The notes: generated by a model from the letters alone, not told the origin. A stretch of DNA of 23,398 nucleotides from a virus (IMGVR_UViG_3300017781_005457:1-23398); one strand, 5' to 3'; positions 2,100 through 23,079 are shown, counted from the first letter of the stretch. Translations and numbers: made by a program.

Positions 2100-2100
2100 T

Positions 2101-3929: not shown

Positions 3930-4716
3930 TTATTTTGTATTCTTCATTAGGGTCATTATCTAATGGTGTTTTATCTACACCAGCATATTTACTCCCATTA
4001 GTCCATTTATCTAATTGATGAAATCCATGTGTTCTATTACCTAATTGATCATCAAAAATAGCTTTATATTGTCCATATTCTTTTAAAGGTGAACAATGTT
4101 TATAGTGGTGCCATAAATGAACAAACATTACTGCATCTAGATTTCTTGTTCTTGGGTGTGGAAACCAAAAATCTTTATTAATCATGCTTTCTCTTCTCCA
4201 ACTAACTTGAGATGAATCTAAATTAGTAACAGGCATAACTAATCTAGTAGTTACATCTTCTTCATTTGGTTTTCCTTTTGTATAATTCTGTATTGTTGGG
4301 TTGTAATATTTTAATTTACAATAAGCATAATGAATTTGAGGATTATGGTTATAAAAACGGTTTAGACTATTTAAATATGATGGTACTAAAGCATCATCAT
4401 CACATAACATAAAAACAATATCAGCATCTGAATTTTGTATTGCTTCATTGGCATATTTTCCTATTTCACTACCCTGTCTATTAATTTTATCTATTACAGT
4501 ATCATGAGTATTAATAAATTTAGTTTTTTTAAGAAAACTAGGTTTTAATATACTTCTTGCTATTGGTTCACCTAAATGTTCACTCCCATCATCTATAAAA
4601 GCTATTTCAAAGTTTTTATAAGTTAATTTATTAATGCTATTCAAAGCATTCCTAACCATTTCAGGTCTATTATAATAAAAAAATATAATTAAAAATTTTA
4701 AATCTTTCTTTTCCAT
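3919..4716 (-). CDS. GT2-family glycosyltransferase
   Basis: The protein has 265 residues and a GT-A fold. FLIIFFYYNRPEMVRNAL at 8-25 is the opening strand and helix, AFIDDGS at 39-45 carries the first acidic pair that contacts the nucleotide, and VFMLCDDDAL at 101-110 holds the DxD metal-binding site. A WRRESM segment further on fits the acceptor side. The only plausible start is the ATG at 4716, which lies 19 nt inside the upstream gene, an unusually long overlap for this window. It would add one sugar to the glycan made by this cluster. Substrate is unknown. The family call is secure. Confidence 0.88.
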   Translation of the reverse strand: MEKKDLKFLIIFFYYNRPEMVRNALNSINKLTYKNFEIAFIDDGSEHLGEPIARSILKPSFLKKTKFINTHDTVIDKINRQGSEIGKYANEAIQNSDADIVFMLCDDDALVPSYLNSLNRFYNHNPQIHYAYCKLKYYNPTIQNYTKGKPNEEDVTTRLVMPVTNLDSSQVSWRRESMINKDFWFPHPRTRNLDAVMFVHLWHHYKHCSPLKEYGQYKAIFDDQLGNRTHGFHQLDKWTNGSKYAGVDKTPLDNDPNEEYKINVK

Positions 4717-6119: not shown

Positions 6120-6121
6120 AA

Positions 6122-7318: not shown

Positions 7319-7928
7319 AAAATTTATTTTGTTTTTCTTGTTTTTCTATTGTTTTAGGATGATATAAAGCATATTGTTCTGCTTTAGGTAAAGGTGCATA
7401 AGTTAAAAATCCATCTAACTTTTCATGTACTTTATTTACCCACTTAATTTCAGGTTTATTTTTCCAAATTCTCCATTGATAATCAGGCCAATTAACCCAC
7501 CCTTCATTTGATAATCTCCAACCCCACTTTTTAACATGCTCAGTTTTTATACCTTTAACAGTATTAACACGCGGTACTAAATATACTTCATTATCAGGAT
7601 TATTTTCTAATATTTCAGGTAATGCTTCAAGTAATATAGTATGAGGTATTTCATCCGCATCAATTTGAAAAATATAATCACCTGTACATAAATCTCTTAG
7701 TGTATTTTTCCAATCAGCAAAATGTTTTTTGAAAGTTTTAGCATGATAAGTACAACAATTGTCTCCATTTAATTCAGATAATCTATCCCATACTTCAGGT
7801 GAACCATTCTTTTTATCAAATAAAATAACTATTTCATCTTGCTTACGTTTTTTATTTATAAGTAAGTTTAATAAACGAGTTATCTCATCTAATTCATTAC
7901 AAACTGTAATTGCATAACTTATTTTCAT
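7305..7928 (-). CDS. GT2-family glycosyltransferase (WaaE-like)
   Basis: The protein has 207 residues. The opening ISYAITVCNELDEITRLL (3-20) with a following DEIVILFD (31-38), the KHFADWKNTLRDLCTGDY stretch (68-85) and FQIDADEIP (87-95) match the short GT2 enzymes related to LPS-core beta-glucosyltransferase WaaE. In these the D-A-D motif binds the metal and donor and a tryptophan-rich C-terminal half contacts the acceptor. Here W146, W149 and neighbours lie in such a stretch. It overlaps the DegT gene by 14 nt. A copy of the TTTCGTATATT motif lies 21 nt upstream of its ATG, inside the end of the previous gene, so a promoter there is possible but unproven. Confidence 0.87.
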   Translation of the reverse strand: MKISYAITVCNELDEITRLLNLLINKKRKQDEIVILFDKKNGSPEVWDRLSELNGDNCCTYHAKTFKKHFADWKNTLRDLCTGDYIFQIDADEIPHTILLEALPEILENNPDNEVYLVPRVNTVKGIKTEHVKKWGWRLSNEGWVNWPDYQWRIWKNKPEIKWVNKVHEKLDGFLTYAPLPKAEQYALYHPKTIEKQEKQNKFYETI

Positions 7929-7931
7929 ATT

Positions 7932-8375
7932 TTACTCAGGTAATACTCCAATATACGAAAGAGCATCCATGTACTCACGTTCTGGAAATGATTTTAATGA
8001 AGACATATCCATTTTATGTGTTTGTCCTTCTACTTTTCCTTCTTCTCCCTCTTTAAGAGGTATAGCTTTAACACCAGCCCACGTCCAAGATTGTTCATCT
8101 GCACCATTAGCAAATACCATACCAGAAGAAGGTATATTAATAGTATTTGGGATCCAAATTAAATCTGTTTCTGGATCTTTCCAAGCAATATCTTTATAAA
8201 GTTCAGGTAATGTAATTAACTGTTCATTATAAAACTCAGAACCTTCTTTCATTAGTGAATTTGTCCAAAATCCACAAGATAAACTTAAATAGTTAGTTAT
8301 ATCTTTATTTATTTCAACTTTGTAACATAAGTCACCTCCTGACTTAGGACAATTTATTATTTCATCGTATTGCAT
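7932..8375 (-). CDS. Hypothetical protein with cysteine-containing N-terminus
   Basis: The protein has 147 residues and is not assigned to a named family. Near the N-terminus it has NCPKSGGDLCYK (8-19) and LSCGFW (32-37). This looks like a treble-clef or zinc-ribbon start (C-P-x-C-G-G) in which the second cysteine is a serine, so metal binding may be partial or lost. The rest is mixed, with several tryptophans (WIPNTIN, SWTWAGVK) and a conserved-looking end DALSYIGVLPE. No membrane segment or signal peptide is seen. It sits 2 nt from the upstream and 3 nt from the downstream glycosyltransferase genes and is probably co-expressed with them. Its role is unknown; similar proteins occur in marine T4-like phages as far as I recall. 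Confidence 0.75.
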   Translation of the reverse strand: MQYDEIINCPKSGGDLCYKVEINKDITNYLSLSCGFWTNSLMKEGSEFYNEQLITLPELYKDIAWKDPETDLIWIPNTINIPSSGMVFANGADEQSWTWAGVKAIPLKEGEEGKVEGQTHKMDMSSLKSFPEREYMDALSYIGVLPE

Positions 8376-8377
8376 AA

Positions 8378-9679
8378 TTAATTTAATTTAGGTAATTCAA
8401 CTTTTGTTTTTGGGTTTAAAGTAGGGATTTTTAAATCTACTTGTTTTGGAAATTCAGGAATATTAGCGTCTAATATTTTACCCACTAATTCTTTCATTTT
8501 CTCCCAACTAAAATTAGTTTTAATATAATGCCCTTGTTGTTTTGAAGGCACAATATATTTTTTATAATTTGTATAAACATTTTTAAATGCTTTTGTAGCA
8601 TGTGTTTGATCAACACTAAACCATTGGAATTGTTTTAATAACCATTTATTTGCTGCTGAATCATGTATGTGTTCTAATTTACCAGGTAATAAGTAAGCAT
8701 ATGCTGGATTTAAAAAATCTAATTGACCTGACCAACCTGATGCTATTATTGGTTTTTTAGATAAACAAAATTCCATTAATGGTCTTCCATATCCTTCACC
8801 TTTAGTATGTGAAACCATAGCTTTTATTTTTGGGTGATTATATAATTCATTCATTTCAGAATTTGTAAAATCCCCTTGTAATAAATAAACATTAGGTAAA
8901 TCTTCACCTCCTACTGATTGTCTAATTCCATTAACTTTATCTAATATAGCATCTCTACTCATATGATTATCTACTCCAGTTGAAGCTTTTAATATTAAAG
9001 CAGGTTTAGCACCTTTTTTATTTTTAAATGTTTCAAGGAAATTTTTAATCATTAACCCAACATTTTTTCTATCATGACCAAGTGCTCCTTCCATCCACAT
9101 CCCAACAAATAAAAAGCAAAATGATTCTTCAATTTCATTTAAATCTAATTTATTATCTTTTGTAGGTAAATGTTTGTAAATATCTAAATCTGCTCCCTCA
9201 AATACAACATGAATTGGTTTTTGATTACGTATTTTTTCTCCTGTTGGTTTATTATTTTGATCTAATTGGTCAAATGATAAATTTTCAAATACATTTTTAC
9301 TATGTTTAGAAGATACAAAGTTCATATTCATTCTATTTAACCCTTGTACCCATTCACCTTGGCAACCTGTACTTTCAATTCCGGCTGTACATCCGATATT
9401 GAATTTTCCAACTGGTTGAAATTCATTAGGTATAGTAATTTGCATCCAAACATCAGGTTGAATACCTTGAGGTATCGATTGAACTGCATGATCCCATAAA
9501 AATTTCCATTCAGGGTGTTTTGCACAAAATCCCCAAGTTGTATCACCCCACTTTTGTGGTAATAATTTTACATCATATTTGTCTAACTTAATAATAGCTT
9601 TAACAATATCTCTTGCTCGTGCTCCATAACCACTATAGGTATCAAAAGGAGAACTTATATAAAATGTAGGTTTACTCAT
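8378..9679 (-). CDS. GT4-type (GT-B fold) glycosyltransferase
   Basis: The protein has 433 residues. FYISSPFDTYSGYGARARDI (6-25) is the N-terminal strand and glycine-rich loop of GT-B retaining enzymes. CFLFVGMWMEGALGHDRKNV (188-207) resembles the start of the donor-binding domain. KGEGYGRPLMEFCLSKKPII (293-312) is the E-x7-E-like signature of GT4 proteins, where the conserved glutamates hold the nucleotide sugar. It starts in a 1-nt TAATG overlap with the preceding GT4 gene, and the two together may add successive sugars. It has no membrane anchor. Family assignment is strong; sugar and linkage are unknown. Confidence 0.9.
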   Translation of the reverse strand: MSKPTFYISSPFDTYSGYGARARDIVKAIIKLDKYDVKLLPQKWGDTTWGFCAKHPEWKFLWDHAVQSIPQGIQPDVWMQITIPNEFQPVGKFNIGCTAGIESTGCQGEWVQGLNRMNMNFVSSKHSKNVFENLSFDQLDQNNKPTGEKIRNQKPIHVVFEGADLDIYKHLPTKDNKLDLNEIEESFCFLFVGMWMEGALGHDRKNVGLMIKNFLETFKNKKGAKPALILKASTGVDNHMSRDAILDKVNGIRQSVGGEDLPNVYLLQGDFTNSEMNELYNHPKIKAMVSHTKGEGYGRPLMEFCLSKKPIIASGWSGQLDFLNPAYAYLLPGKLEHIHDSAANKWLLKQFQWFSVDQTHATKAFKNVYTNYKKYIVPSKQQGHYIKTNFSWEKMKELVGKILDANIPEFPKQVDLKIPTLNPKTKVELPKLN

Positions 9680-11121
9680 TAGTATATTAATTTATGGTTT
9701 AAAAATTTTCCTCTATATTCAGTTAGATTAGTAATAATCATTTTAGGTTTTGGTTGCCATTTGTTAAATAATTCTTCAAATGCTTCCATTACTCTATATC
9801 CTTGATGATCTGCTGTAAATCCAGCTTCATCACCAATTGCCCAATCTCTACCTGCTTTTCCTCTTCTATCTCTTTCTTCAGGAGATAAATTATAAATTTC
9901 TGTTAATCTATCAACTGCATCTTCCCATCTACATCTATCATCAAAAATATAAGGTGTAGGAGGAGAGCCTTGTATTGATCTCGAAGATGGATAAACTGGG
10001 AATGCCCATTCTCCATGTTCTTTATAAGTACCTCTATGGTTAGAAGGTACATCAGGACATGGTGTAAACCATTTACCATTTTTATCTACAAATCTCATTT
10101 GATCTTGCATTCCACCTGTAGTATTAGCTATAATACAAGTACCTGATAAAATAGCTTCAGTAATTGTTAATCCCCAACCTTCATTAGAAGTTAATAACAT
10201 TTGGACATCTGCTAAATTATATAGATAATTTAATTCATTTCTATTTAATTTTGCCGTTGAAAATATTACATGATTTGGATACTTTTCACCAAATAAATAT
10301 TCATTAACCTTAGCTAAATTTGTACCATGATTTGATGAAACCTCAGTATGAAGAATTAATCTACAACTTTCTGCTTCTTCTGGTGGTAACGAATCTAAAA
10401 AGGTCCTAAATGCTAACATAGTATCAGGAATTTGTTTTCTTCTTATATTCCTTGAATTAAAGAAAGCTATAAATTTAGTTTTTTCATCATCTTTACCTAA
10501 TACTTTTTTTCTAAAATCTAAATATTTTTGATCTTTTTTATCAACTGGAAAGAAATGATCATGATTTAATCCGTGAGGAACATATTTAAATATTTTCTTT
10601 TTATCTTCTCCAACTACTAATTTATTTATGTTAACAGTTTGTTTTGAAATACCCATTAATAAATCACAAGATTCATAGAATGGTTTATTGTACATTGGAG
10701 CTGGATAGTCATCCCAAATATTTAAATAAGTAATTGGAATTGATTTTCTAATTTCATGTTCCATTTGAAATACCCAGGTAAAGTATCTAGGATCAGTAAT
10801 AAGCAAGATAGCATCTGGTTTTTCTTGTGCTATTACTTGTCTTAAAATATCACCATTTCCATATCCATCAACACACCATAAAAAACATGAAGCATCTTTT
10901 ATATTTGCTTCTTTATTACAGTCGTTGCTTAGATCAAGTCTTTTACCTTTATCTGGATGTTTAACTGCTCCAGCTAACTGTACCCAATTATAATGGTGAC
11001 ATGTTTTTAATACAATTTCTTTACCTACAGTTGCTACACCTGAGGTTACTCTTATATCATCAGTGATTAATAATATTTTCTTCCTTTTATCTTTAGGAAG
11101 ATGCTTATAACTTTTATTCAT
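9679..11121 (-). CDS. GT4-type (GT-B fold) glycosyltransferase
   Basis: The protein has 480 residues. KILLITDDIRVTSGVATVGK (15-34) is the GT-B N-terminal strand and loop. FIAFFNSRNIRRKQIPDTM (217-235) corresponds to the donor-domain start with the basic residues that bind the nucleotide phosphates. TSNEGWGLTITEAILSGTCI (311-330) is the E-G-x-G-x-x-x-x-E signature of GT4 retaining enzymes. It is the first large gene of the glycan block after the small ribbon-helix-helix-like gene (10-nt gap). It probably starts or extends a glycan chain in the cytoplasm. Assignment to GT4 is secure; substrate unknown. Confidence 0.9.
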   Translation of the reverse strand: MNKSYKHLPKDKRKKILLITDDIRVTSGVATVGKEIVLKTCHHYNWVQLAGAVKHPDKGKRLDLSNDCNKEANIKDASCFLWCVDGYGNGDILRQVIAQEKPDAILLITDPRYFTWVFQMEHEIRKSIPITYLNIWDDYPAPMYNKPFYESCDLLMGISKQTVNINKLVVGEDKKKIFKYVPHGLNHDHFFPVDKKDQKYLDFRKKVLGKDDEKTKFIAFFNSRNIRRKQIPDTMLAFRTFLDSLPPEEAESCRLILHTEVSSNHGTNLAKVNEYLFGEKYPNHVIFSTAKLNRNELNYLYNLADVQMLLTSNEGWGLTITEAILSGTCIIANTTGGMQDQMRFVDKNGKWFTPCPDVPSNHRGTYKEHGEWAFPVYPSSRSIQGSPPTPYIFDDRCRWEDAVDRLTEIYNLSPEERDRRGKAGRDWAIGDEAGFTADHQGYRVMEAFEELFNKWQPKPKMIITNLTEYRGKFLNHKLIY

Positions 11122-12805: not shown

Positions 12806-13030
12806 CTATATAACTTGTTTTCCTGGTTGGAAATATTTTTCTAATATCTCTAATCTTTCATGTGCGCCCGCAAAAGTTTTTAATGCTTCTTGAGCATTTT
12901 TATAAAAATCTTCTGTTGTGTGATCACCAATCCCTACTGGGTTATTTGATAATAGATCAATACTTAATAGTGCTTTTGCTTTATCCGCTGTTGCAGCTGA
13001 ATGGAGCATTTGATATAATTTTTCGTTCAT
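12806..13030 (-). CDS. Small helical hypothetical protein
   Basis: The protein has 74 residues, is mainly helical by composition and has no recognised domain. It is rich in alanine and leucine early on (LHSAATADKAKALLSIDLL, 9-27), has a glycine/histidine turn (PVGIGDHT, 31-38) and ends in an acidic-basic helix ERLEILEKYF. It overlaps the end of the gp62-type gene by 4 nt (ATGA), so it is translated with the clamp loader, and abuts the Nmad1-like gene. No cysteines, membrane segment or signal peptide are seen. The close packing supports a real gene; function unknown. Confidence 0.75.
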   Translation of the reverse strand: MNEKLYQMLHSAATADKAKALLSIDLLSNNPVGIGDHTTEDFYKNAQEALKTFAGAHERLEILEKYFQPGKQVI

Positions 13031-13443
13031 TTTAATAAGGGTTTTATTTGTTTTTTTTCTAATCCTATACTCATCAATATACGAAGGACTTCGTCATTCC
13101 CCAAAAAATCTAAATATTCTTTTACTTCAGTTTTTGAACATTCCCAATAACTGCTTAAATGATTAAGTAACTCATCATTGTGTTTTTTAATATTAGACTT
13201 AATATATTTATTCCATTTATTATTTTTTGGAATATATTCTCTATAAATTGAGTATATTTCTTCTTTATTTTGAGGGTTTATTCTTTGTGCCTCATTAACT
13301 AAATCTAAATAGTCTACATTCATAGACATAAATCTATGAATCATATAACTATTCCAAAGTTCCCAGTCTTTATCTGAAAATGATGAAGGATTGGCTTTAA
13401 TAGAATTAATCTGTTTTAACCAATCCCAAACATTTTTAATCAT
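13027..13443 (-). CDS. 62: Clamp-loader small subunit, gp62-type
   Basis: The protein has 138 residues. It matches the compact gp62 of marine T4-like phages rather than the longer T4 protein. Recognisable parts are NSYMIHRFMSMNVDYLDLVN (about 31-50), in which the P/SYM(I/V)xRxxS pattern recurs in gp62, followed by NKEEIYSIYREYIPKNNKW (about 58-76) and a C-terminal helical part with SKTEVKEYLDFLG. With gp44 it would form the 4:1 ATP-driven loader that opens the gp45 clamp on DNA. It lies just downstream of gp44 with one small gene between, as in the T4 45-44-62 order. A TTCGTATATT copy occurs inside its 3' end. The identification is by pattern memory, so moderately sure. Confidence 0.75.
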   Translation of the reverse strand: MIKNVWDWLKQINSIKANPSSFSDKDWELWNSYMIHRFMSMNVDYLDLVNEAQRINPQNKEEIYSIYREYIPKNNKWNKYIKSNIKKHNDELLNHLSSYWECSKTEVKEYLDFLGNDEVLRILMSIGLEKKQIKPLLK

Positions 13444-13725: not shown

Positions 13726-14640
13726 TTATTTATTATTGATTAAATTATTGATTAAACTCATTATATTAATTTCCTTATCAATTCGGAAATTAGCTTTATA
13801 TTGATGGTCATTAACTAACATAGCTACTGTACCTTCTTTACCAGGCATATATTTACTTGCGCTTTCATATAAAGATCTAAATAAATCTTCATAATCATCT
13901 GTATTAGCATTAGCAATTATTTGTCTAATATTTTTAAAATTTGGTTTTGATTTACCTAATTCATCTATTACTTCATATATGTATTTAGATGAAACTAAAA
14001 GTGATTTATCTAATTTAAGTTCATTATTAACTGTATTAGCTTGAATTGCATTAATGCATTTTCTTAAATCAGGATAAAACTGTAATACTATGGCACCTAA
14101 ACTATCCATATCAAATACAATTTTTTCTAAATCCATAATCCAAGATAAATGATAAGCAACTTGCTTTTTATTTGGTGGAACTACTTTAAGTACTTGACAT
14201 CTAGATTGTAGAGGATCTATAATTCTTTCTACATAATTACAAGTTAAAATAAATCTTGTAGTTCTAGAAAATGTTTCTATTATGTTTCGGAGCGATGCTT
14301 GCGCTTGAATCGTAAGAAAATCCGCCTCGTCCAAGATAACAACCTTGAGGGGCTTAAATGAAGCAACCGATGCGAAACTAGAGACTTTATCCCTAATAGT
14401 TTCGATCCCACGCTCGTCAGAAGCGTTAATATAAATGTGATCACAATCTAAATTTTTAATTATTAATTTTGCTAATGTAGTTTTACCTGTACCAGCTGGT
14501 CCATAAAATATAAAATTTTGAATATCATTATTATATAATTGGGATGCAATGGAGGATTTTAAACTCTCATTACCAACATAATCTTTTAATTTTACTGGTC
14601 TGTATTTTTCTACTAGTAAGCTATGATTAGTATTCTCCAT
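13726..14640 (-). CDS. 44: Clamp-loader large subunit, gp44-type AAA+ ATPase
   Basis: The protein has 304 residues, close to T4 gp44 (319). It is a AAA+ clamp-loader ATPase: LVEKYRP (9-15) is the family's N-terminal signature, FYGPAGTGKTT (45-55) Walker A, VVILDEAD (100-107) Walker B, FILTCNY (130-136) sensor 1, and PLQSRC (143-148) the arginine-finger SRC motif. It uses ATP to load the gp45 sliding clamp on primed DNA for the polymerase. It overlaps the upstream 88-residue gene by 14 nt. A patch covering about residues 70-118 uses GC-rich codons unlike the rest (see finding). The call is secure. Confidence 0.95.
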   Translation of the reverse strand: MENTNHSLLVEKYRPVKLKDYVGNESLKSSIASQLYNNDIQNFIFYGPAGTGKTTLAKLIIKNLDCDHIYINASDERGIETIRDKVSSFASVASFKPLKVVILDEADFLTIQAQASLRNIIETFSRTTRFILTCNYVERIIDPLQSRCQVLKVVPPNKKQVAYHLSWIMDLEKIVFDMDSLGAIVLQFYPDLRKCINAIQANTVNNELKLDKSLLVSSKYIYEVIDELGKSKPNFKNIRQIIANANTDDYEDLFRSLYESASKYMPGKEGTVAMLVNDHQYKANFRIDKEINIMSLINNLINNK

Positions 14641-14898: not shown

Positions 14899-14928
14899 AA
14901 TATACGAAATTATTTGTTAACCTCCAAA
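14899..14928 (-). promoter_or_regulatory. Bacteroidota-like promoter upstream of the clamp-loader genes
   Basis: On the minus strand TTTG (14928-14925) is followed by 20 bases and then TATATT (14904-14899), inside the motif TTTCGTATATT, with the ATG 5 bases later. It matches the TTTG...TAnnTTTG layout in spacing. The TTTG lies in the last codons of groEL. A transcript starting the usual distance after the box would have almost no leader. Confidence 0.55.
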
Positions 14929-16554
14929 TCCTGGTTGAGGAACTGCATTATTTTCATGTCCTCTTTCTTTAAATTCATCGGAATCTTTATCTTCAATAAT
15001 AGTACATTCAGTAAGTAATACTGTTCCAGCAACTGAAGATGCATTTTGTAATGCTAATCTGGTTACTTTAGTAGGATCAATTATACCTGCTTCTTTATAA
15101 TCTATTACTTTCCCTTCATCTATATGAATTCCTGCCCAATGATCATTACCTGAATCTACTAGTTTATATTTACCTAGTAATTGTGCTTCAGTTGAATCAT
15201 AACCAGCATTAAGTAATATTTGTTCAAATGGTTTTCCACATGCTTTATAAACAATTTTTGCACCTTCATTGTTTACATTTATATCTTCTCTTGCATAAAG
15301 TAAAGCAACTCCACCTCCTGGTAATATTCCTTCTTCAATAGCAGCTTTTGTTGCATGTAAAGCATCATCAACCCTATCTTTTCTTTCATTCATTTCTGTT
15401 TCAGTATAACCACCTACATGGATTATTGCAACTCCACCTACAAATTTAGCTAATCTATTTTGTAATTGTTCAGTTTCATATGGTGTTTTAGATTTTGTAA
15501 CTTGAGCTTGTATTTCTTCAATACGCGATTCAATTGTTTCAATATCTCCTTTACCATCAACTATTGTAGTTTGTTCTTTTTCTATAGTAACTACTCTAGC
15601 TTCACCAAACCAATCCCAACTAAATTTATCAAGTTTCATTCCTTTATCTTTACTAAATACAGTACCACCAGTAGTAATAGCTATATCTTCTAGAATTAAC
15701 TTTCTTCTATCTCCAAAATCAGGAGCTTTTACAGCACAAACACTTAATGTACCTCTCATTTTATTGACAATAAGAGTAGCTAATGCTTCATTATCTATAT
15801 CTTCAGCAATTATTAATAATGATTTACCTTGAGCACCTACTGCTTCTAAAATTGGAAGTAATTCTTTAACTGATGATAATCTACCATCAACAATAAGAAT
15901 AGCTGGGTTTTCAAGTACTGAGGTCATATCATTGTTATTAGTAACAAAATACGGGGATTTATAACCTCTAGCAAATTGCATTCCTTCTACAGTTTCAATA
16001 TAATTATCTGCTGTCCTAGAAGATTCAATATGAACAACACCTTGTTGACCTACTTTATCTACTGCAGTAGCAATTAATTTACCTACTTCTGAATCATTAT
16101 TAGCTGATACAGTAGCAATTTGTTGTAATTGGCTTTCTTCACCTATGTCTTCTGACATATTTTTAAGTGAAGCAATTACTTCTTGGGTTGCTTTATCTAT
16201 ATCTCTTTTAATTTGAACAGCATTTTGTTTATTATCTAAAGCACTTAAACCATTCTTAATTATTTCTCTGGCTAATAGTGTAGATGTTGTTGTACCGTCT
16301 CCAGCTTTATCTGCTGTTTTAATAGCTGCCCATTTTACTAGTTGTACTCCTAATTCTTGATTAGGTTCTTTTAATACAATATTTTTTGCAACTGTTACAC
16401 CATCTTTAGTACTTTGTGGTGCTTCAATTATTCCTTTTCCTATAACAACATTTCTACCATTAGGTCCTAGGGTTGAAACAACAGCATCTGCTAAAATATC
16501 AATACCTTTTATTAAATTTTTTCTGGCGTTTTTACCAAATTCTACTTTTTTCAT
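14917..16554 (-). CDS. groEL: Chaperonin GroEL (Hsp60), phage-encoded
   Basis: The protein has 545 residues, full length. ATP-site motifs are intact: STLGPNGRNV (27-36), TKDGVTVAKNI (49-59), AGDGTTTSTLL (84-94) with D86, and DDALHATKAAIEEGILPGGG (396-415) with D397 at the position of the hydrolytic aspartate. The apical domain (about 185-375) carries GYKSPYFVT and RGTLSVCAVKAPDFGDRR. It ends PQPGFGG instead of the bacterial GGM repeats. It should form the 14-mer that folds proteins with GroES, either to aid phage protein assembly or to supplement host chaperonin. The partner groES is 1 nt upstream. The divergence from bacterial GroEL throughout suggests an old phage lineage, but this is by eye. 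Confidence 0.97.
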   Translation of the reverse strand: MKKVEFGKNARKNLIKGIDILADAVVSTLGPNGRNVVIGKGIIEAPQSTKDGVTVAKNIVLKEPNQELGVQLVKWAAIKTADKAGDGTTTSTLLAREIIKNGLSALDNKQNAVQIKRDIDKATQEVIASLKNMSEDIGEESQLQQIATVSANNDSEVGKLIATAVDKVGQQGVVHIESSRTADNYIETVEGMQFARGYKSPYFVTNNNDMTSVLENPAILIVDGRLSSVKELLPILEAVGAQGKSLLIIAEDIDNEALATLIVNKMRGTLSVCAVKAPDFGDRRKLILEDIAITTGGTVFSKDKGMKLDKFSWDWFGEARVVTIEKEQTTIVDGKGDIETIESRIEEIQAQVTKSKTPYETEQLQNRLAKFVGGVAIIHVGGYTETEMNERKDRVDDALHATKAAIEEGILPGGGVALLYAREDINVNNEGAKIVYKACGKPFEQILLNAGYDSTEAQLLGKYKLVDSGNDHWAGIHIDEGKVIDYKEAGIIDPTKVTRLALQNASSVAGTVLLTECTIIEDKDSDEFKERGHENNAVPQPGFGG

Positions 16555-16555
16555 A

Positions 16556-16912
16556 TTATATATCTGTTAAATGTTCTTTATCAATTTCACTTACTTCTGT
16601 TTCGGCCAGTATATCTTCTACTGGTACTATTACCTTAGCTAAAATTTGGTTTTCAGGACCAACATAATATTCTTCACCATCAAATTGTAATTTGGTAAAT
16701 CCCATTGTTGGTAGAATAACCTTTTCTCCTACCTTAATAATTGTTTTTAAAAATTCCCCTGAATGTGTGTGTTTTCCAGGTCCTACAGCTAACACTTCAC
16801 CTACTTCATTTAATTCTTTACCCATATCCGGAACGATAATTCCTCCATAAGTAACTTCCTCGTTTTCAATAGGTTTAACGATAACTGCGTCAAATAGCGC
16901 TTCTAAGTTCAT
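16556..16912 (-). CDS. groES: Co-chaperonin GroES (Hsp10), phage-encoded
   Basis: The protein has 118 residues against about 97 in bacteria. DAVIVKPIENEEV (8-20) matches the start of the Cpn10 barrel. YGGIIVPDMGKELN (22-35) is the mobile loop, whose hydrophobic IIV would dock on GroEL. VGEVLAVGPGKHTHSGEF (37-54) is the roof-loop region, and VGEKVILP (61-68) with DGEEYYVGPENQILAKV (78-94) the closing strands. The extra ~20 acidic residues at the C-terminus (EDILAETEVSEIDKEH) are unusual. It forms the heptameric lid of GroEL. Its ATG overlaps the stop of the small upstream gene (ATGA), and groEL starts 1 nt after its stop, giving a compact operon. Confidence 0.96.
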   Translation of the reverse strand: MNLEALFDAVIVKPIENEEVTYGGIIVPDMGKELNEVGEVLAVGPGKHTHSGEFLKTIIKVGEKVILPTMGFTKLQFDGEEYYVGPENQILAKVIVPVEDILAETEVSEIDKEHLTDI

Positions 16913-17214
16913 AATTGTTGTATGTATTGTTTAATATTGGTTTCAATTTTTCTATAATTATTTATAACTTCATCTACTGATGTATAGTTTTTCTTTGTAT
17001 GGAGTAAATATTTAGAGATTGACTCTAAGGCACCTCCTAAATTAGGATGGTAAGTTTGGGGCTTATGATATTCCTTTCCTTTACCTTTTGTCCTAAAATG
17101 ATTCGCATTAGGCGTAATTCTTTCATTCACTGTATAACAATGGTCATCCTTTGTTATAAAGTAAGGTTCCAATTTTGGATCCTCAATAATTGTAAGTTGT
17201 TTGCTTTTTTTCAT
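16909..17214 (-). CDS. Small hypothetical protein heading the groESL operon
   Basis: From the preferred start the protein has 101 residues. An upstream in-frame ATG at 17238 would place the codons over the TTTCGTATATT promoter motif, while ATG 17214 lies 6 bases after its TATATT box, matching the spacing at two other genes; 17214 is therefore chosen. Residues DPKLEPYFITKDDHCYTVNE (12-31) and HPNLGGALESISKYL (56-70) are the distinctive parts and the protein ends in a basic helix. No family is named. It overlaps groES by ATGA, so it is co-translated with the chaperonin genes. A link to folding is possible from position only. Confidence 0.75.
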   Translation of the reverse strand: MKKSKQLTIIEDPKLEPYFITKDDHCYTVNERITPNANHFRTKGKGKEYHKPQTYHPNLGGALESISKYLLHTKKNYTSVDEVINNYRKIETNIKQYIQQL

Positions 17215-17220
17215 AACGAC

Positions 17221-17249
17221 AATATACGAAAAAAACATTGCTAGGACAC
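17221..17249 (-). promoter_or_regulatory. Bacteroidota-like promoter of the groESL operon
   Basis: The minus strand has GTG (17249-17247), a 20-base spacer, then TATATT (17226-17221) within TTTCGTATATT, followed after 6 bases by the ATG at 17214. The -33 element is a weak match to TTTG/TTG. The box, the C-G before it and the distance to the ATG repeat what is seen at 14899 and 19225. Confidence 0.5.
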
Positions 17250-17262
17250 GTTTTTTTGCAAT
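17229..17262 (-). terminator. Weak intrinsic terminator-like hairpin after hsp20
   Basis: In the minus-strand transcript ATTGC (17262-17258) can pair with GCAAT (17241-17237) across a 16-base loop, followed by GTTTTTTT. The U-run is good but the stem is only 5 bp, so efficiency is doubtful. It overlaps the spacer of the next promoter, a sensible place to separate two transcripts. Confidence 0.3.
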
Positions 17263-17267
17263 TATTT

Positions 17268-17690
17268 TTACTTAATTTTAATAGATTTTGGCTTAGCTTC
17301 TTCAGCTAAAGGTATAAAAATCTCTAATAATCCATTTGTTAAAGATGCATCAGTTTGACCTAAATCAAATTTAGGAGCAATTTTGTATCTTAAATCAAAT
17401 GATTTTTTAGATAAACCTTGATGAATAGTTCCTTCATGGAATTTTTCATCTTCTGGTTTTTTATATGTGATTTTTAAAATATCACCTTCTATATCAAGGA
17501 TAACGTCTTTTTTAGTTAACCCAGTACAGGCAACTTCAAAATAAAGTCCTTTATCATCGAAGAAAATATTAAGTGGATGTGATTGTTTTGTGTTTGTAGC
17601 TGGTTGAAATGTACTATCAGCTTTGAAGTGATTCCTAAATAGGATGTCGAAAGGACTTAAATGCCTCTCTAATAATTGTAATGTACTCAT
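17268..17690 (-). CDS. hsp20: Small heat-shock protein Hsp20 (alpha-crystallin family)
   Basis: The protein has 140 residues. The N-terminal arm includes the phenylalanine-rich LSPFDILFRNHF (11-22). An alpha-crystallin domain spans about 40-130, with LYFEVACTGLTKKDVILDIE (49-68) and the hallmark LTNGLLEIFIPLAEE (117-131). The tail SIKIK holds the I-x-I motif (137-139) that docks neighbouring subunits. It would hold unfolding proteins, passing them to the GroES/GroEL pair encoded just downstream. Hsp20 is a recurrent gene of T4-like marine phages. It is flanked by the two largest gaps in this region, with a hairpin upstream and a weak terminator-like hairpin downstream, so it may be a separate transcription unit. 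Confidence 0.92.
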   Translation of the reverse strand: MSTLQLLERHLSPFDILFRNHFKADSTFQPATNTKQSHPLNIFFDDKGLYFEVACTGLTKKDVILDIEGDILKITYKKPEDEKFHEGTIHQGLSKKSFDLRYKIAPKFDLGQTDASLTNGLLEIFIPLAEEAKPKSIKIK

Positions 17691-17821: not shown

Positions 17822-18484
17822 TTAATCTTCTGAATCAAAGAAAAACATTTGCCATAATCTTCCTGACTCAATATCCCACCCAAAATAGTCTTGGGCAGCA
17901 TGAATACATTTAGCATCGAATATAACTAATCTGTTATAAACATTTCCTGCAACGTCAACATCTTCATATGGGTGAGGATCAACAAATGTGTGTTGATTAA
18001 AAGCATGATCAATATTTTTACCATTTACTGGTTCTTGACTATGTCTTATTTTAGTTTCTTTATGTTGCATTAATCTTGTTCCAGAAGCTACAGGTGCATC
18101 AGGAGATAAATAAATCATTCCTGCCCATCTTTGTTGATCACAATGATAAACTAAAGATGTACCAGATATTGCAGATTGAAATCTTCCATTCATACCATAA
18201 TCCTCCCACATTTCTTTTCCTACAATTTTTTTCCCAATTATTTCTTCAAATTTTTCTTTAACACCATCAAAAAAGTATTGTTTTCTTGTACGCATACCTA
18301 AGTATCCTGGATCATCAAAATAATACTGTTTTAATGCAAAGTCTCTTACTGCTTGTGGATCTTCATAAAAATTATCTACAATCCATATTCTTGGTTTTTG
18401 ATTTTTATTTACTTTAAATTCATTAGAGTATATTTGACCCCATTGACTATCAGGTGAGGAATCTTTTTTCTTAATTTTGCTCAT
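17822..18484 (-). CDS. 2-oxoglutarate/Fe(II)-dependent oxygenase-like protein
   Basis: The protein has 220 residues. The double-stranded beta-helix core is suggested by VYHCDQQRWAGMIYL (112-126), giving the H-x-D iron ligands H114 and D116. CIHAAQDYFG (193-202) supplies the distal histidine H195, and SGRLWQMFFF (207-216) has R209 in place to bind 2-oxoglutarate. IWIVDNFYEDPQAVRDFAL (33-51) is the usual N-terminal segment of DUF6445-like and related oxygenases. Such enzymes hydroxylate proteins, sugars or small molecules and are common in marine T4-like phages. It lies 11 nt downstream of the clamp gene and is probably co-transcribed with it. Substrate unknown. Confidence 0.83.
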   Translation of the reverse strand: MSKIKKKDSSPDSQWGQIYSNEFKVNKNQKPRIWIVDNFYEDPQAVRDFALKQYYFDDPGYLGMRTRKQYFFDGVKEKFEEIIGKKIVGKEMWEDYGMNGRFQSAISGTSLVYHCDQQRWAGMIYLSPDAPVASGTRLMQHKETKIRHSQEPVNGKNIDHAFNQHTFVDPHPYEDVDVAGNVYNRLVIFDAKCIHAAQDYFGWDIESGRLWQMFFFDSED

Positions 18485-18495
18485 ATTTTTTTAAT

Positions 18496-19218
18496 TTATT
18501 CGTTTCGTGCTATATAATAAATACTATTAATACCACCTTCAAATGATAATTTCATCATTCCTTTTTTAGATATTTTTATACTACAAGTGTCTATATCTTT
18601 ATTTGCATTTAAAATATCTTTAAATATATCTGAATTAAAAGGTAATTTAATACTTTCATCTGTTATAGTACCTTGTAATTGATATTCTATTTTATTTGAA
18701 AATCCTGTATTATCGCCAAATAAGAATTCACAAACAATATTTCCGTCTAAATCCTTTGAAGATTGAACTAACATATTATCTACATCATTTAAAGCATTTT
18801 TTGCTTTTATTAAATTGTCTACTTCTTCTCTAACTAAACTTAATTCTATTTCAAATCCTTCTTCTGGGTCATTATACCAAGGGGATTTACCCATTATTAA
18901 AGTATCGGCTAATGCGTAAGATAATTCAAAATTAGCATCTGATATATTTAATTTAGTATGTAATTCTCCTTGTTTTTCAGATGATAATAATAAATCACCA
19001 TTTGTAATTGATAATAATTTTATTAATTTATTTGTATCAAATACTCCAATTTCACAATCTTCAAAGTTAAATTCAGATAAAACTACTTTACATACTCTAC
19101 CTGACTCACCAGCATAAACAGTTAAGGTATTATCCTTAATTCTCCATTTAACTTGATTATTCAATCCATTTATATAATACTTAGAAATAAATGATTGTAA
19201 TGTGTTTTTATTTATCAT
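18496..19218 (-). CDS. 45: Sliding clamp, gp45-type
   Basis: The protein has 240 residues (T4 gp45 has 228). It shows the gp45 pattern: alternating strands without catalytic motifs, IGVFDTNKLIKLLS (57-70) as the inter-domain helix, LLLSSEKQGELHTKLNISD typical of the first domain, and KLPFNSDIFKDILNANKDID in the second. It would form the trimeric ring that tethers the split polymerase to DNA and, in T4-like phages, also activates late transcription. The gene directly follows the polymerase C-terminal part, with a TTTCGTATATT motif 6 bases before its ATG, so it has its own promoter. The position between polymerase and clamp loader and the length support the call. Confidence 0.88.
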   Translation of the reverse strand: MINKNTLQSFISKYYINGLNNQVKWRIKDNTLTVYAGESGRVCKVVLSEFNFEDCEIGVFDTNKLIKLLSITNGDLLLSSEKQGELHTKLNISDANFELSYALADTLIMGKSPWYNDPEEGFEIELSLVREEVDNLIKAKNALNDVDNMLVQSSKDLDGNIVCEFLFGDNTGFSNKIEYQLQGTITDESIKLPFNSDIFKDILNANKDIDTCSIKISKKGMMKLSFEGGINSIYYIARNE

Positions 19219-19224
19219 AACCGT

Positions 19225-19252
19225 AATATACGAAAAATATTTTAGATTTCAA
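19225..19252 (-). promoter_or_regulatory. Bacteroidota-like promoter of the sliding-clamp gene
   Basis: The minus strand has TTG (19252-19250), a 19-base spacer and TATATT (19230-19225) within TTTCGTATATT, with the ATG 6 bases after the box. It is the best match of the three start-linked copies. The TTG lies in the last codons of the polymerase C-terminal gene. It would let the clamp be made in excess over the polymerase. Confidence 0.6.
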
Positions 19253-20177
19253 CGGAATTGAACGCATTTATGTAAGGGTTTAAATCCAAACTCCATTGTA
19301 AATCACTAAAAAATCCTTCTAGTTTATTTAATAATATTGAGTCAAATACTTTTTGTCTATCAGCATATTGCTCTAAAAATTGTTTAATTTTATCAGGCAT
19401 ATCATAATCAAAAAATGCTAAAGCTTCTATTTTATATGGGTTATCTTTTAAATAAATCCATTTTACTTTATCTGCCATAGTAATTAAATTATATTTTCTA
19501 TCTAATTTCCATAATTTTAATAAATCATTATAACGAATAGCAGCTCTAACTGGTGCAGGTGCTCCTTTTAATATTTCAGTAAATAATTCTCCTGCTCTAG
19601 CTTTTTGACCAGAGTATTTTTGTAATTTTTTAACTGCTGTAGGATTACCTAATTTAGCTAGTGGAATAGATCCACCTAATATTTGTTTTTTAAATGTTTT
19701 AATTTGGCTAATAATATTAGCTTTCTCTTCTCCCTTTAATACTTGTTGAAGAATTTTGTGAAAAAAATCCCCTAAAATAGGTGGAAAATTCGCTTTCATA
19801 AATTCTAGACCTTTTATATCTAAAACCTCTTTGTTTATACCTTCTTGTTTGGTTATCCATTGTGCATAACGTCTTGTTGCCCTGAAATAAGCTGATCTTA
19901 TTACACATTCAGTTTTCATTTCAAGTCTGTGAGTTGTGATGTTAAAGGTCTCACGACATAACCTATCATAATCGTCTGTAATAATATCTTGGTAAGCTAA
20001 AGCAACTTTTTCTAATTTACTATCCTTTTCTTCATCTGATAGTTCTTCAAAATTAGGATATAAATGTTTTAATATTGGTTCAGCATTAAAATAATTGGAA
20101 TCAGTGTCAACATAAGCACAGTAGTTCTTATCTTCTTTATCACAAATAAACCAAGGTGTTTCTTCTAAATGTTTCAT
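19242..20177 (-). CDS. 43: DNA polymerase family B, C-terminal part (motif C and thumb), gp43C
   Basis: The protein has 311 residues. AYVDTDSNYF (21-30) is polymerase motif C, with catalytic D24 and D26. CVIRSAYFRATRRYAQWI (91-108) matches the KKRY-region motif of T4 gp43 that contacts the primer-template, and LDIKGLEFMKANFPP (119-133) the following family B motif. The rest is the thumb. It has no exonuclease, motif A or motif B, which are in the gene at 20804-22507. The two together total 878 residues, close to T4 gp43 (898). It begins in an ATGA overlap with the DUF6165-like gene. The two chains must associate to give an active enzyme. A conserved clamp-binding C-terminal peptide of the T4 type is not obvious. 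Confidence 0.93.
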   Translation of the reverse strand: MKHLEETPWFICDKEDKNYCAYVDTDSNYFNAEPILKHLYPNFEELSDEEKDSKLEKVALAYQDIITDDYDRLCRETFNITTHRLEMKTECVIRSAYFRATRRYAQWITKQEGINKEVLDIKGLEFMKANFPPILGDFFHKILQQVLKGEEKANIISQIKTFKKQILGGSIPLAKLGNPTAVKKLQKYSGQKARAGELFTEILKGAPAPVRAAIRYNDLLKLWKLDRKYNLITMADKVKWIYLKDNPYKIEALAFFDYDMPDKIKQFLEQYADRQKVFDSILLNKLEGFFSDLQWSLDLNPYINAFNSVEI

Positions 20178-20542
20178 CTATATTCCTTAATATTTTTAAA
20201 TTTGGAACCAGAAATAATATTAATATCATTTTTTAATTGATTCCTAACTTCATTATATTTAAATATCATTCTTGATGATTTAATAAAATCTTTATCTCTA
20301 ATTGTTTTTTCTCTAACTCTATTTTCTAATTCCCATAATATACGATTAACTTTAGCTAACTCCAAATATAATACTTTAATTTCTTTACCATTTTTTGTAA
20401 ATATTTCTACTACTCCCGGATTTAACAATAGAAATTCCTTTTCAACATTAGCTAAATTATCAGCATTGTGCATATTTAATTTTTTTATTTCTAATATAGA
20501 AATTCTATCTAGTAATTCGCCATTTGAAATCTCTATTTTCAT
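20174..20542 (-). CDS. DUF6165-like protein inserted between polymerase halves
   Basis: The protein has 122 residues, highly helical and charged. KIEISNGELLDRISILEIKK (2-21) matches my memory of the DUF6165 start (I-x-[VI]-S-x-G-E-L-x-D-[KR]-x-[ST]-I-L-E-I-K). Later parts LYLELAKVNRILWELENRVR and SRMIFKYNEVRNQLKNDINI also fit, and the end (SGSKFKNIKEYR) resembles the usual closing S-Y/E-Y segment. DUF6165 proteins have no proven activity that I know of, and in bacteria are often next to glycosyltransferase genes. Here it is coupled by ATGA to the polymerase C-part downstream and by 1 nt to the upstream small gene. It is not RegA, which has a similar length in T4 but a different sequence. Confidence 0.72.
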   Translation of the reverse strand: MKIEISNGELLDRISILEIKKLNMHNADNLANVEKEFLLLNPGVVEIFTKNGKEIKVLYLELAKVNRILWELENRVREKTIRDKDFIKSSRMIFKYNEVRNQLKNDINIISGSKFKNIKEYR

Positions 20543-20543
20543 T

Positions 20544-20807
20544 TTAAAATCTTGTATCTCCTGGTATTTTAATTATTGGGCCTGGTCTTTCTCCTTGTGA
20601 GTTTCTTAAAGGGCTATCTAAATCAATTTGAAATGTAACATTATTTATTTTAAATCTAAATACTCCTTGTTTTAGAAATTTTTTAAATGCATTTTCTTGT
20701 TTTTCAGACCAAAGTTCACTCATAGTAATTAATTCTTCTTTACTAATAGTTTCACCATTTGCTATGATATGCATATTTTTTCTAATAGATTGTTTTTTTA
20801 ATGTCAT
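20544..20807 (-). CDS. Small hypothetical protein after polymerase N-terminal part
   Basis: The protein has 87 residues with a basic start (MTLKKQSIRKN), a helix SELWSEKQENAFKKFLKQG (about 30-48), a strand pair VFRFKINNVTFQIDL (about 49-63) and a glycine/proline-rich end (GERPGPIIKIPGD). No family is recognised. Its ATG overlaps the stop of the polymerase N-part by 4 nt and its stop is 1 nt from the DUF6165-like gene, so it is translated with the polymerase. It shows no homing-endonuclease signature (no LAGLIDADG, GIY-YIG or HNH). Function unknown. Confidence 0.72.
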   Translation of the reverse strand: MTLKKQSIRKNMHIIANGETISKEELITMSELWSEKQENAFKKFLKQGVFRFKINNVTFQIDLDSPLRNSQGERPGPIIKIPGDTRF

Positions 20808-22507
20808 ATTTTTAATTTAATTTCATTTCTTATTACTTTATTCATATGTTTATTTGCGCATAAGGCAGATTCTTGAATAATTCTGTGACCTGATAATGTA
20901 ATTGCTTCACTTAATATAGATTCTGGTAATCCATATCTAAAACCAGGTAATGCTGTTGCACCATATAAACTATTAAGCAAAATTTTCATTGTGTATTGCA
21001 TTAAATAGTTATATTCTCCTGCTATTTTATCTTTAGCTTCATATGCTTTTTTCATTGCTTTTTTATAAACAACCCTTTCATTAAACCATTTATTTAAAAC
21101 GGTTGATAATGTAGATTCTTTTTCAGTTGAAAATATAGAACCATTAGCAGATACTGAAAAGTTATTTTGTTCAATCATGTTTATTAGCCTTCCAACATTA
21201 ACATTAGTAGAATTATCTTTAGAATTTTTAATTAATAATTCTTCATTAGGATCACGTTTTTTTAAATCGTTTAAACCCAATCTATTATTACGATCATCTG
21301 CATCTACAATACGCCCTACAAAAGTTTCTCTACCTATGTTTAAAGACATAATTATAGATGGATACAGTGATGTTAAATCTTCATCAAACATATACTTATA
21401 CAATCCTGCTTTAGGACAAAATAAATACCCCCCAGCATATCCTTTTTTAGCTTTTGGGTTAATATGTCTTGCGGGTGGAATTATTCCTTGAGAAAGTAAA
21501 TAAGCTGATATAGCTCCATCTTGAGTAATGCTATTAGAATAAACTTCACTGTAATTATGTTTTCCTTTATGGGATAAATTTTTAGTTAAAGCTATATATT
21601 GTAATTTTTCATCTAATAATTTTAATATTTCAACATCACGAAAATTATATTGAATAAATTTATGTATATCGGTTGCGAATAATTGGTCTAAATTACCTTC
21701 ATATTCTATTTTACCAATACCTGTATATTTTTCTCCAATAGCATCTAATTTCCAACTTGGTTCATCTTTCCAACTATATTTTTTATGCAAACGAATATAA
21801 TCTAAAGATTCAACACCTATAATATCAACAAATTGGTTTCTTTTAAAAAACCATTCATTATTTTTTTTAGCATTAACTTTATTTATAGGAGATAAATGAT
21901 TAGCCCATTCTTTACCTAAAACATTACACATTCTATAGTATAGATAAGGTATATCAAAAAAATCACTATTATAACCAATTAAAATATCAGGATCAATTTC
22001 TCTAAACTTTTCTAAAAACTTAGCTAATAATTCCTTTTCTGTTTTACAAGGAATAATTTCTTTATTTTTTGCTTTAGTATGTTTTAATTCTGATTTTTTA
22101 TCTAAAATTAGGATAGCCCACCAATCTTCTTGTTTATCCCACCAAGCTATAGAAGTAATGGGCATTGGAGCACTTTCAATATATTCTTCAGTTAATGCTC
22201 CTCCAATTTCACACTCAATATCAAAAAATAATTCTCTATGTGAAGTAGATGGTTCATCGGCAGTACCATACCTTTCAACAAGATATTTTTGGTGGGGCTT
22301 CATGTCATGAAAATGTAAATTAGGAGTATTTCTATCCCAATTTACTGTTTTCTTTAATTTTTCACCATTAATCCCATTTAATGTACCTTCACTATCTTCT
22401 ATATAAGAAGCATTATACCAAACAATTTCATCATATCCAATATCATCCCAAAGATAAACTTTGTATTTATTGTCTTTTATTTTTTGAGTATAACACTTTT
22501 TATACAT
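20804..22507 (-). CDS. 43: DNA polymerase family B, N-terminal part (exonuclease, motifs A and B), gp43N
   Basis: The protein has 567 residues. The 3'-5' exonuclease is complete: FFDIECE (94-100, D96 and E98), IGYNSDFFDIPYLYYRM (177-193, D185) and YNFRDVEILKLL (287-298, D291). DEDLTSLYPSIIMSL (375-389) is polymerase motif A with D377, NERVVYKKAMKKA carries fingers residues, and MKILLNSLYGATALPGFRY (507-525) is motif B with K508. The chain ends about 40 residues later, before motif C, so alone it cannot catalyse polymerisation. Motif C and the thumb are in the gene at 19242-20177. All motifs are intact, arguing against decay. It overlaps MazG by 1 nt. Confidence 0.95.
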   Translation of the reverse strand: MYKKCYTQKIKDNKYKVYLWDDIGYDEIVWYNASYIEDSEGTLNGINGEKLKKTVNWDRNTPNLHFHDMKPHQKYLVERYGTADEPSTSHRELFFDIECEIGGALTEEYIESAPMPITSIAWWDKQEDWWAILILDKKSELKHTKAKNKEIIPCKTEKELLAKFLEKFREIDPDILIGYNSDFFDIPYLYYRMCNVLGKEWANHLSPINKVNAKKNNEWFFKRNQFVDIIGVESLDYIRLHKKYSWKDEPSWKLDAIGEKYTGIGKIEYEGNLDQLFATDIHKFIQYNFRDVEILKLLDEKLQYIALTKNLSHKGKHNYSEVYSNSITQDGAISAYLLSQGIIPPARHINPKAKKGYAGGYLFCPKAGLYKYMFDEDLTSLYPSIIMSLNIGRETFVGRIVDADDRNNRLGLNDLKKRDPNEELLIKNSKDNSTNVNVGRLINMIEQNNFSVSANGSIFSTEKESTLSTVLNKWFNERVVYKKAMKKAYEAKDKIAGEYNYLMQYTMKILLNSLYGATALPGFRYGLPESILSEAITLSGHRIIQESALCANKHMNKVIRNEIKLKI

Positions 22508-23079
22508 TAAATTATAGTTCCTGGATTAAAGTTTGGTCTACATCTATCTATTTCTTCATTTGTAAAGAATTGATGTAAATTAGGTTTAAAATAATTTATT
22601 GATTTCATTACTTTTCTGTCTCTGGAACGGTAGACAATATACCTTCCTTCCTCAAGTTTTTCAAAATGGCAGGCCTCAGCTTGTTCCTTACTTCGTACCC
22701 TGACGGTATCCATGGCTTCTTCTTCAGATTTGCAAGCTTTTGACATATTAGACGCTTGTACTTCCTCATATGCAGGCCATATCTTACTCTTAAGGCCGTG
22801 TAGCATAGTACCGTTCCCAAGGGAAACATAAGTAATATCGCACAAAGCGTCCAAAACCTCCACGATGTCTCCTCTTTCGCAAGCTTCTTTATATTCTTCA
22901 AGTTCTTCAAGGATAAAGTCATAAACGAACTTCCACTCCTTTTCTTTTGGTATTGTTGTTTCATAATTATTTGGTTTGCCAAATGTGGCGTTAAATTCTT
23001 CTACTTCATCTACAAAAGGTACTCCATTGACCCATGTAGGTAATTTTTCTTCTTTGAATAATTTTAATTGTTTACTCAT
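22507..23079 (-). CDS. MazG-like nucleoside triphosphate pyrophosphohydrolase
   Basis: The protein has 190 residues. The all-alpha NTP pyrophosphatase signature is present: LEEELEEYKEA (57-66) gives the E-E-x-x-E metal ligands and VEVLDALCDITYV (73-85) the E-x-x-D pair. VQASNMSKACKSEEEAM (107-123) and the C-terminal YIVYRSRDRKVMKSINYFKP fit the Bacteroidota-type homologues I recall, annotated as phosphoribosyl-ATP or NTP pyrophosphohydrolase. It would cleave NTPs or (p)ppGpp-like nucleotides to monophosphates, shaping nucleotide pools for replication. It lies 1 nt upstream of the polymerase gene. Residues 53-153 are encoded with GC-richer codons than either end (about 43% GC by hand count). 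Confidence 0.85.
   Translation of the reverse strand: MSKQLKLFKEEKLPTWVNGVPFVDEVEEFNATFGKPNNYETTIPKEKEWKFVYDFILEELEEYKEACERGDIVEVLDALCDITYVSLGNGTMLHGLKSKIWPAYEEVQASNMSKACKSEEEAMDTVRVRSKEQAEACHFEKLEEGRYIVYRSRDRKVMKSINYFKPNLHQFFTNEEIDRCRPNFNPGTII

What the first reader, a model, noticed from the sequence alone, without database searches (positions are those of the whole stretch)
19242..22507. T4-like DNA polymerase split into two proteins between motif B and motif C
One gene encodes the exonuclease plus motifs A and B (567 aa). Another, 627 bases further along the transcript, encodes motif C (YVDTDS) and the thumb (311 aa). Every catalytic motif is intact and the lengths sum to 878 aa, near T4 gp43, so this is a functional split and not decay. 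The break falls between the post-motif-B helix and the motif C strand. Split family B polymerases are known in some Aeromonas T4-like phages and in Methanothermobacter. Here the two halves are separated by two other genes with no homing-endonuclease signature.
Basis: partly seen in the sequence, partly recalled or inferred. Interest (0 to 1): 0.8.

Follow-up and report, generated by a model that had tools for sequence, protein, structure and literature searches.

The report
Phage DNA polymerase in two pieces
A large, uncultured group of aquatic T4-related phages makes its DNA-copying enzyme as two separate proteins that must join to form one active site, and many members have packed unrelated genes into the gap between the two halves.

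Summary
A T4/RB69-type family B polymerase is encoded as a 567-aa protein (N domain, exonuclease, motifs A and B) and a 311-aa protein (motif C, thumb), 627 nt apart with two unrelated genes between.

It is not an artefact or decay. In 184 non-redundant related IMG/VR and MAG loci the break is always at the same place (motif C always residue 24 of the C half) and none has one continuous frame. 75 of 79 loci of the nearest unsplit clade do. dN/dS is about 0.09 and 0.08. No intein, intron or endonuclease was found at the junction.

In 37 loci the halves overlap by 1-4 nt (mostly ATGA). Most others carry a small conserved gene and often glycan-type cargo, up to 4.2 kb. The break maps to T4 residue ~608, about 100 residues from the Aeromonas 44RR break (~510). 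The C half gained a conserved extension (MKHLEDTPW[WF]ICD) absent from unsplit relatives, a candidate subunit latch.

Best explanation: an obligate two-subunit replicative polymerase. Complex formation and activity are inferred, not shown. Split PolBs are known, so this is a new variant of a known kind. The clade is probably Immutovirus-like phages of Flavobacteriia (weak host evidence).

The parts
20804..22507 (-). Polymerase N half, 567 aa: N-terminal domain, 3'-5' exonuclease, palm motif A, fingers, motif B
   Evidence: fold search hits RB69/T4 gp43, TM 0.7-0.77; dN/dS 0.09
19242..20177 (-). Polymerase C half, 311 aa: N-terminal extension, motif C (YVDTDS), rest of palm, thumb
   Evidence: thumb residues 124-299 match RB69 729-893 at Z 19, rmsd 1.9 A; dN/dS 0.08
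22214..22222 (-). Exonuclease motif D96-I-E98 (T4 D112/E114)
   Evidence: Alignment to T4 gp43
21377..21379 (-). Motif A aspartate D377 (T4 D408), catalytic metal ligand on the N half
20960..20974 (-). Motif B NSLYG (N half residues 512-516)
20097..20108 (-). Motif C DTDS, C half residues 24-27; same position in all 184 loci
20139..20177 (-). Lineage-specific extension of the C half, residues 1-13 (MKHLEETPWFICD); candidate inter-subunit latch (inferred)
   Evidence: Absent from T4, 44RR and Mel-clade polymerases; P8 and I11 invariant, mean entropy 0.47 against 0.90 for the protein
20544..20807 (-). Y87, small conserved gene of unknown function between the halves; start overlaps N-half stop by 4 nt (20804-20807)
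   Evidence: Between the halves in 135 of 184 loci; lies ~9 kb from the polymerase in two 164-kb relatives, so it is not a polymerase fragment
20174..20542 (-). X122, DUF6165/DUF4254 cargo gene; its stop overlaps the C-half start by 4 nt (20174-20177)
   Evidence: Pfam; in the gap of 41 of 78 loci
18496..19218 (-). Sliding clamp (gp45 family) directly downstream
   Evidence: phrog_223
13726..14640 (-). Clamp loader large subunit (gp44 family)
   Evidence: phrog_168
13027..13443 (-). Clamp loader small subunit (gp62 family)
   Evidence: phrog_225
22507..23079 (-). MazG-like nucleotide pyrophosphohydrolase, upstream neighbour

Best explanation
The two genes encode the two subunits of one replicative family B polymerase of gp43 type. 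The N subunit carries proofreading, fingers and the motif A metal ligand. The C subunit carries the motif C metal ligands and the thumb. They associate non-covalently after translation from one operon and complete the palm sheet, so neither should polymerise alone. The heterodimer then works with the phage's own gp45 clamp and gp44/62 loader. The split happened once in the ancestor of this clade, at the surface loop before the motif C hairpin. A 13-residue extension of the C half, gained by the clade, probably helps the halves lock together. The junction, no longer bound to one reading frame, repeatedly took up passenger genes. Shown: sequence, conservation, selection, absence of unsplit copies and of splicing elements. 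Inferred: complex formation, activity, and the latch role.
For: Break at the same place in 184 non-redundant loci, 0 fused. Nearest unsplit clade 75 of 79 continuous, a positive control for the test. dN/dS 0.09 (N) and 0.08 (C). N and C distances correlate 0.91, against 0.34 with the adjacent MazG gene; the clamp gives 0.90, as expected of replisome partners. Catalytic residues intact. No second PolB in 16 large contigs up to 168 kb. The split clade is one group with 100% support. The C half modelled alone has a confident thumb but unfolded palm pieces (residues 1-13 and 86-128, pLDDT under 50), as expected if palm folding needs the N half. Precedent: split 43A/43B of Aeromonas phage 25 co-purify and are active (reviewed in PMC2988022).
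Against: No biochemistry and no modelled complex. The low palm confidence of the C half could also reflect a shallow alignment (48 rows). 11 of 12 large contigs also encode a small family A polymerase-like protein, so the split PolB is not the only polymerase candidate. N and C trees share only 12 of 43 splits in quick trees, though distances correlate strongly.
Confidence: 0.88

Rival explanations
1. The halves are joined covalently after expression by a split intein, or at RNA level by a trans-splicing intron.
For: Split inteins at PolB are known (Pseudomonas phage MIJ3, PMC6892783). In distant relatives the same region carries inteins (L084, L125).
Against: The N half ends within a few residues of the homologous break and the C half has only 23 residues before motif C, too short for intein parts and without the HN+S/T/C end. 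N overlaps the next gene by 4 nt, leaving no room for an intron half. No Rfam match in the window.
Confidence: 0.03
2. A programmed frameshift or readthrough makes a fused protein.
For: In 34 loci the halves overlap as ATGA and the C frame is reached by a -1 shift.
Against: In 146 of 184 loci, the window included, other genes lie between the halves. No conserved slippery heptamer seen at the overlaps.
Confidence: 0.03
3. The polymerase is inactive or relic; another polymerase (host enzyme or the phage's small family A protein) copies the genome.
For: Small PolA-like protein of 417-460 aa in 11 of 12 large contigs, with motif A aspartate, motif B K and YG, and motif C aspartate.
Against: Purifying selection and intact motifs in both halves. 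The related cultured phage immuto has the same small protein beside a full 777-aa PolA, so the small one is probably accessory. The gp45/44/62 accessory set is kept.
Confidence: 0.05
4. Assembly or sequencing artefact.
For: All loci are metagenomic or MAG contigs; no reads could be mapped.
Against: Same break in 184 distinct sequences from many samples, with different genes between.
Confidence: 0.01

Closest known systems
Split gp43 (43A/43B) of Aeromonas phages 25 and 44RR
   Same: T4-type PolB encoded by two adjacent genes; in phage 25 the two proteins co-purify and polymerise DNA (PMC2988022).
   Different: Break at T4 ~510, in the fingers before motif B (498 + 391 aa). In phage 25 a seg homing endonuclease lies between and 43B has a group I intron. 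Here the break is at ~608, after motif B, with no mobile element, and is fixed in a whole clade.
Split PolB of Methanothermobacter thermautotrophicus (Kelman, Pietrokovski and Hurwitz 1999)
   Same: Functional family B polymerase from two genes; from memory the break also separates motif B from motif C.
   Different: Archaeal, with genes far apart. Break position not tested here; only the title was seen in reference lists.
Microcystis phage Mel-JY01 PolB and its clade
   Same: Nearest PolB in phage records (about 34% identity over both halves), with a gp45-like clamp and clamp loader just downstream.
   Different: One continuous 848-aa gene.
Fractured PolB with split intein (Pseudomonas phage MIJ3)
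   Same: Two PolB ORFs near motif C with a gene between.
   Different: Contains intein halves and an HNH endonuclease gene; none here.
Flavobacterium phage vB_FspM_immuto (Immutovirus)
   Same: Nearest cultured relative by major capsid protein (60%), also carries GroES/GroEL and glycan genes.
   Different: Uses a 777-aa family A polymerase; no PolB annotated in the 100 kb read.

Membership tests
T4 gp43-type family B DNA polymerase | Sequence match to PolB profiles over the whole length, in two pieces meeting at one point | tested here: met
   phrog_262 94-569 and 565-842 of 856; PF00136 and PF03104 for N
T4 gp43-type family B DNA polymerase | Exonuclease and polymerase catalytic carboxylates | tested here: met
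   D112, E114, D219, D324, D408 and motif C DTDS of T4 all conserved
T4 gp43-type family B DNA polymerase | Fold of RB69 gp43 | tested here: met
   N model TM 0.70-0.77 to RB69; C thumb Z 19, rmsd 1.9 over 162 residues; C palm part modelled poorly alone
T4 gp43-type family B DNA polymerase | Single polypeptide | tested here: not met
   Two ORFs; 0 of 184 loci fused
Split gp43 of Aeromonas phages (43A/43B) | Break in the fingers before motif B | tested here: not met
   44RR break aligns to T4 510; here 608
Split gp43 of Aeromonas phages (43A/43B) | The two proteins co-purify and are active | not testable with these tools
   Known for phage 25
Split-intein fractured gene | Intein N- and C-terminal blocks flanking the break, endonuclease gene between | tested here: not met
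   No extra sequence of intein size at the break; gap genes are Y87, DUF6165, cupin, aminotransferase, methyltransferase and similar types
T4-like phage | gp23-type capsid in the same genomes | tested here: met
   PF07068 in 5 of 10 large contigs of the clade, E to 8e-76; the window itself is a 23-kb fragment and was not tested for it

The most novel reading that the evidence does not exclude
The split is a regulated two-subunit design and not a neutral accident. The N subunit can act alone as a proofreading or host-DNA-degrading exonuclease, and docking of the motif C/thumb subunit through its conserved PW[WF]IC latch switches polymerisation on.
Probability: 0.12. Interest if true: 0.75.

Novelty: new variant of a known kind. 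Interest (0 to 1): 0.52.

Why it matters
It shows that the catalytic palm of a replicative polymerase can stay divided for the whole radiation of an abundant aquatic phage clade, with the two metal-binding aspartate motifs on different proteins. It supplies hundreds of natural sequence pairs for studying how a split active site is held together, a candidate latch peptide, and a clear case where a split core gene became a docking site for cargo genes. It also gives a natural break point for split PolB enzymes, and points to replacement of the replicative polymerase (PolA in Immutovirus, split PolB here) within related phages.

Tried and rejected
Homing endonuclease or intron at the junction: gap genes clustered (18 clusters from 78 loci); cluster representatives were scanned with Pfam or read by eye; none recognised, and no Rfam hit in the window. 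One Pfam call on gap genes failed because of a wrong coordinate, so about 9 clusters were judged by reading only. Y87 as a polymerase fragment: rejected, since it lies elsewhere in genomes with abutting halves and has no significant Pfam match. Programmed frameshift: rejected for the window. Unsplit clade member hidden by my filters: tested and excluded. Whether the first split junction was an ATGA overlap or already held Y87 could not be resolved on the tree, because the stem to unsplit relatives is very long. N/C tree congruence by shared splits was weak in quick trees (12 of 43) and is not used. Promoter and terminator scan gave no more than chance. Papers: no report of a break at this site found in the open-access library; the key papers of 1999 and 2010 are not held. 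No read mapping and no complex prediction were possible.

Full report
OBSERVATION. On the minus strand of the window, two open frames of 567 aa (22507-20804) and 311 aa (20177-19242) together make one gp43-type family B polymerase. The two match adjacent parts of one PHROG profile, 94-569 and 565-842 of 856. Aligned to T4 gp43, the break falls at residue ~608, in the loop between the helix after motif B and the motif C hairpin. The exonuclease carboxylates, motif A aspartate, motif B and motif C are all intact. Two small genes lie between: Y87, without a known family, and X122, a DUF6165/DUF4254 protein.

IS IT REAL? Searches of IMG/VR with the C half and of GTDB contigs with the N half gave 282 loci that carry both halves, 184 of them non-redundant. 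In all 184 motif C starts at residue 24 of the C half, and none is fused. A filter-free check found 277 motif-B sites in these loci and no case with motif C in the same open frame within 160 aa. A continuity check on the nearest unsplit clade (relatives of Microcystis phage Mel-JY01) found 75 of 79 continuous. One contig (L036) has a stop inside the C half. Pairwise dN/dS medians are 0.09 for N and 0.08 for C. No second PolB was found in 16 large contigs of the clade, up to 168 kb. This excludes an assembly artefact and decay.

HOW THE JUNCTION VARIES. Of 184 loci, 37 have overlapping halves (34 by 4 nt as ATGA, 3 by 1 nt), 1 has them 9 nt apart, 48 have Y87 alone or with little else between, 87 have Y87 plus cargo and 11 have other genes without a recognised Y87. 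Gaps reach 4.2 kb. Cargo includes DegT-type aminotransferase, cupin, cytidylyltransferase and GNAT-type proteins by reading, and FkbM methyltransferase, formyltransferase and phosphomannomutase by Pfam, that is, mostly glycan-type genes. No homing endonuclease was recognised. Y87 is an independent gene: in two 164-kb relatives it lies about 9 kb from the polymerase. On a tree rooted with unsplit polymerases the split clade is one group with full support, while the junction state changes many times. So the split arose once, needs no insert today, and the junction became a landing site for passengers. Which junction state came first is unresolved.

HOW IT MOST LIKELY WORKS. AlphaFold of the N half alone gives a confident model (mean pLDDT 83) matching RB69 gp43. 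The C half alone gives a confident thumb (Z 19, rmsd 1.9 A over 162 residues of RB69 729-893), but its palm pieces, including the N-terminal extension and residues 86-128, are unfolded. In an intact enzyme those pieces pack on the motif A part of the palm, which here is in the other protein (established knowledge of gp43). The simplest reading is an obligate heterodimer that completes the palm on binding. N and C evolve together (distance correlation 0.91, against 0.34 for MazG next to N; the gp45 clamp gives 0.90). The C half has a 13-residue extension, MKHLEDTPW[WF]ICD, absent from T4, 44RR and the unsplit relatives. It is more conserved than the protein's average, with P8 and I11 invariant in 183 sequences. 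I propose it as the latch between the subunits; this is inference.

COMPARISON. Split PolBs are known. In Aeromonas phage 25 the 43A and 43B proteins co-purify and polymerise DNA (PMC2988022), but the break there and in 44RR is at T4 ~510, before motif B. Pseudomonas phage MIJ3 has a PolB fractured by a split intein with an HNH gene. The Methanothermobacter enzyme (Kelman 1999) is, from memory, split between motifs B and C as here; I could not test this. Two distant relatives show independent breaks near the same loop: L084 (LR756508, with two inteins) and L301 (with an endonuclease-like gene between). The region before motif C is thus a recurrent place for breaks and inteins, and an old element-driven break, since cleaned up, is possible.

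WHO CARRIES IT. No phage record exceeds 60% identity in either half. The major capsid protein of a 164-kb member is 60% identical to that of Flavobacterium phage immuto, and two of three GTDB hits sit in Flavobacteriaceae bins. Immuto has a 777-aa PolA next to GroES/GroEL and no annotated PolB in the 100 kb read. The clade here has the split PolB near GroES/GroEL and lacks that PolA (no positive control inside that search). Both share a small PolA-like protein. The replicative polymerase seems to have been replaced between these related phages. The host assignment is weak evidence only.

VERDICT. It is a new variant of a known kind, with a new break site fixed across a large uncultured clade, a candidate latch peptide and a cargo-bearing junction. 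Complex formation and activity remain to be shown at the bench.

Noticed in passing
L474-L477; e.g. 164-kb contig of L382 at 138444-139688: Small family A polymerase-like protein (417-460 aa) in 11 of 12 large clade contigs and in Flavobacterium phage immuto (gp001, 441 aa), with motif A and C aspartates and motif B K and YG kept. A possible second, accessory polymerase.
   Followed up: partly
L472 (immuto NC_055915) 37898-42237: The nearest cultured relative by capsid has a full PolA beside GroES/GroEL where this clade has a split PolB: apparent swap of the replicative polymerase family between related phages.
   Followed up: partly
window 19242-19274 and C-half C termini in related loci: The clamp-binding-like FF[NST]F tail of unsplit and many basal split polymerases is replaced by tails such as AFNSVEI or ALSSFEI in the window's group. 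The clamp interaction may have changed.
   Followed up: no
L301 5964-7007: Independent break of PolB near motif C in the Mel-JY01 clade, with a 275-aa endonuclease-like ORF between; Pfam finds no clear family for it.
   Followed up: partly
L084 9001-16925 (LR756508): Huge-phage PolB with inteins at motif B and motif C and a further break between the two motifs, about 3 kb apart.
   Followed up: no
window 14917-17690: Phage-encoded GroEL, GroES and Hsp20 next to the replication genes.
   Followed up: no
window 1-11121: Block of glycosyltransferase, aminotransferase, sulfotransferase-like and methyltransferase-like genes, probably surface-glycan modification; similar genes appear as cargo between the polymerase halves of relatives.
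   Followed up: no
window 17822-18484: DUF6445 protein that PHROGs calls a minor coat protein, sitting between clamp and Hsp20 genes; the coat label looks doubtful in this context.
   Followed up: no
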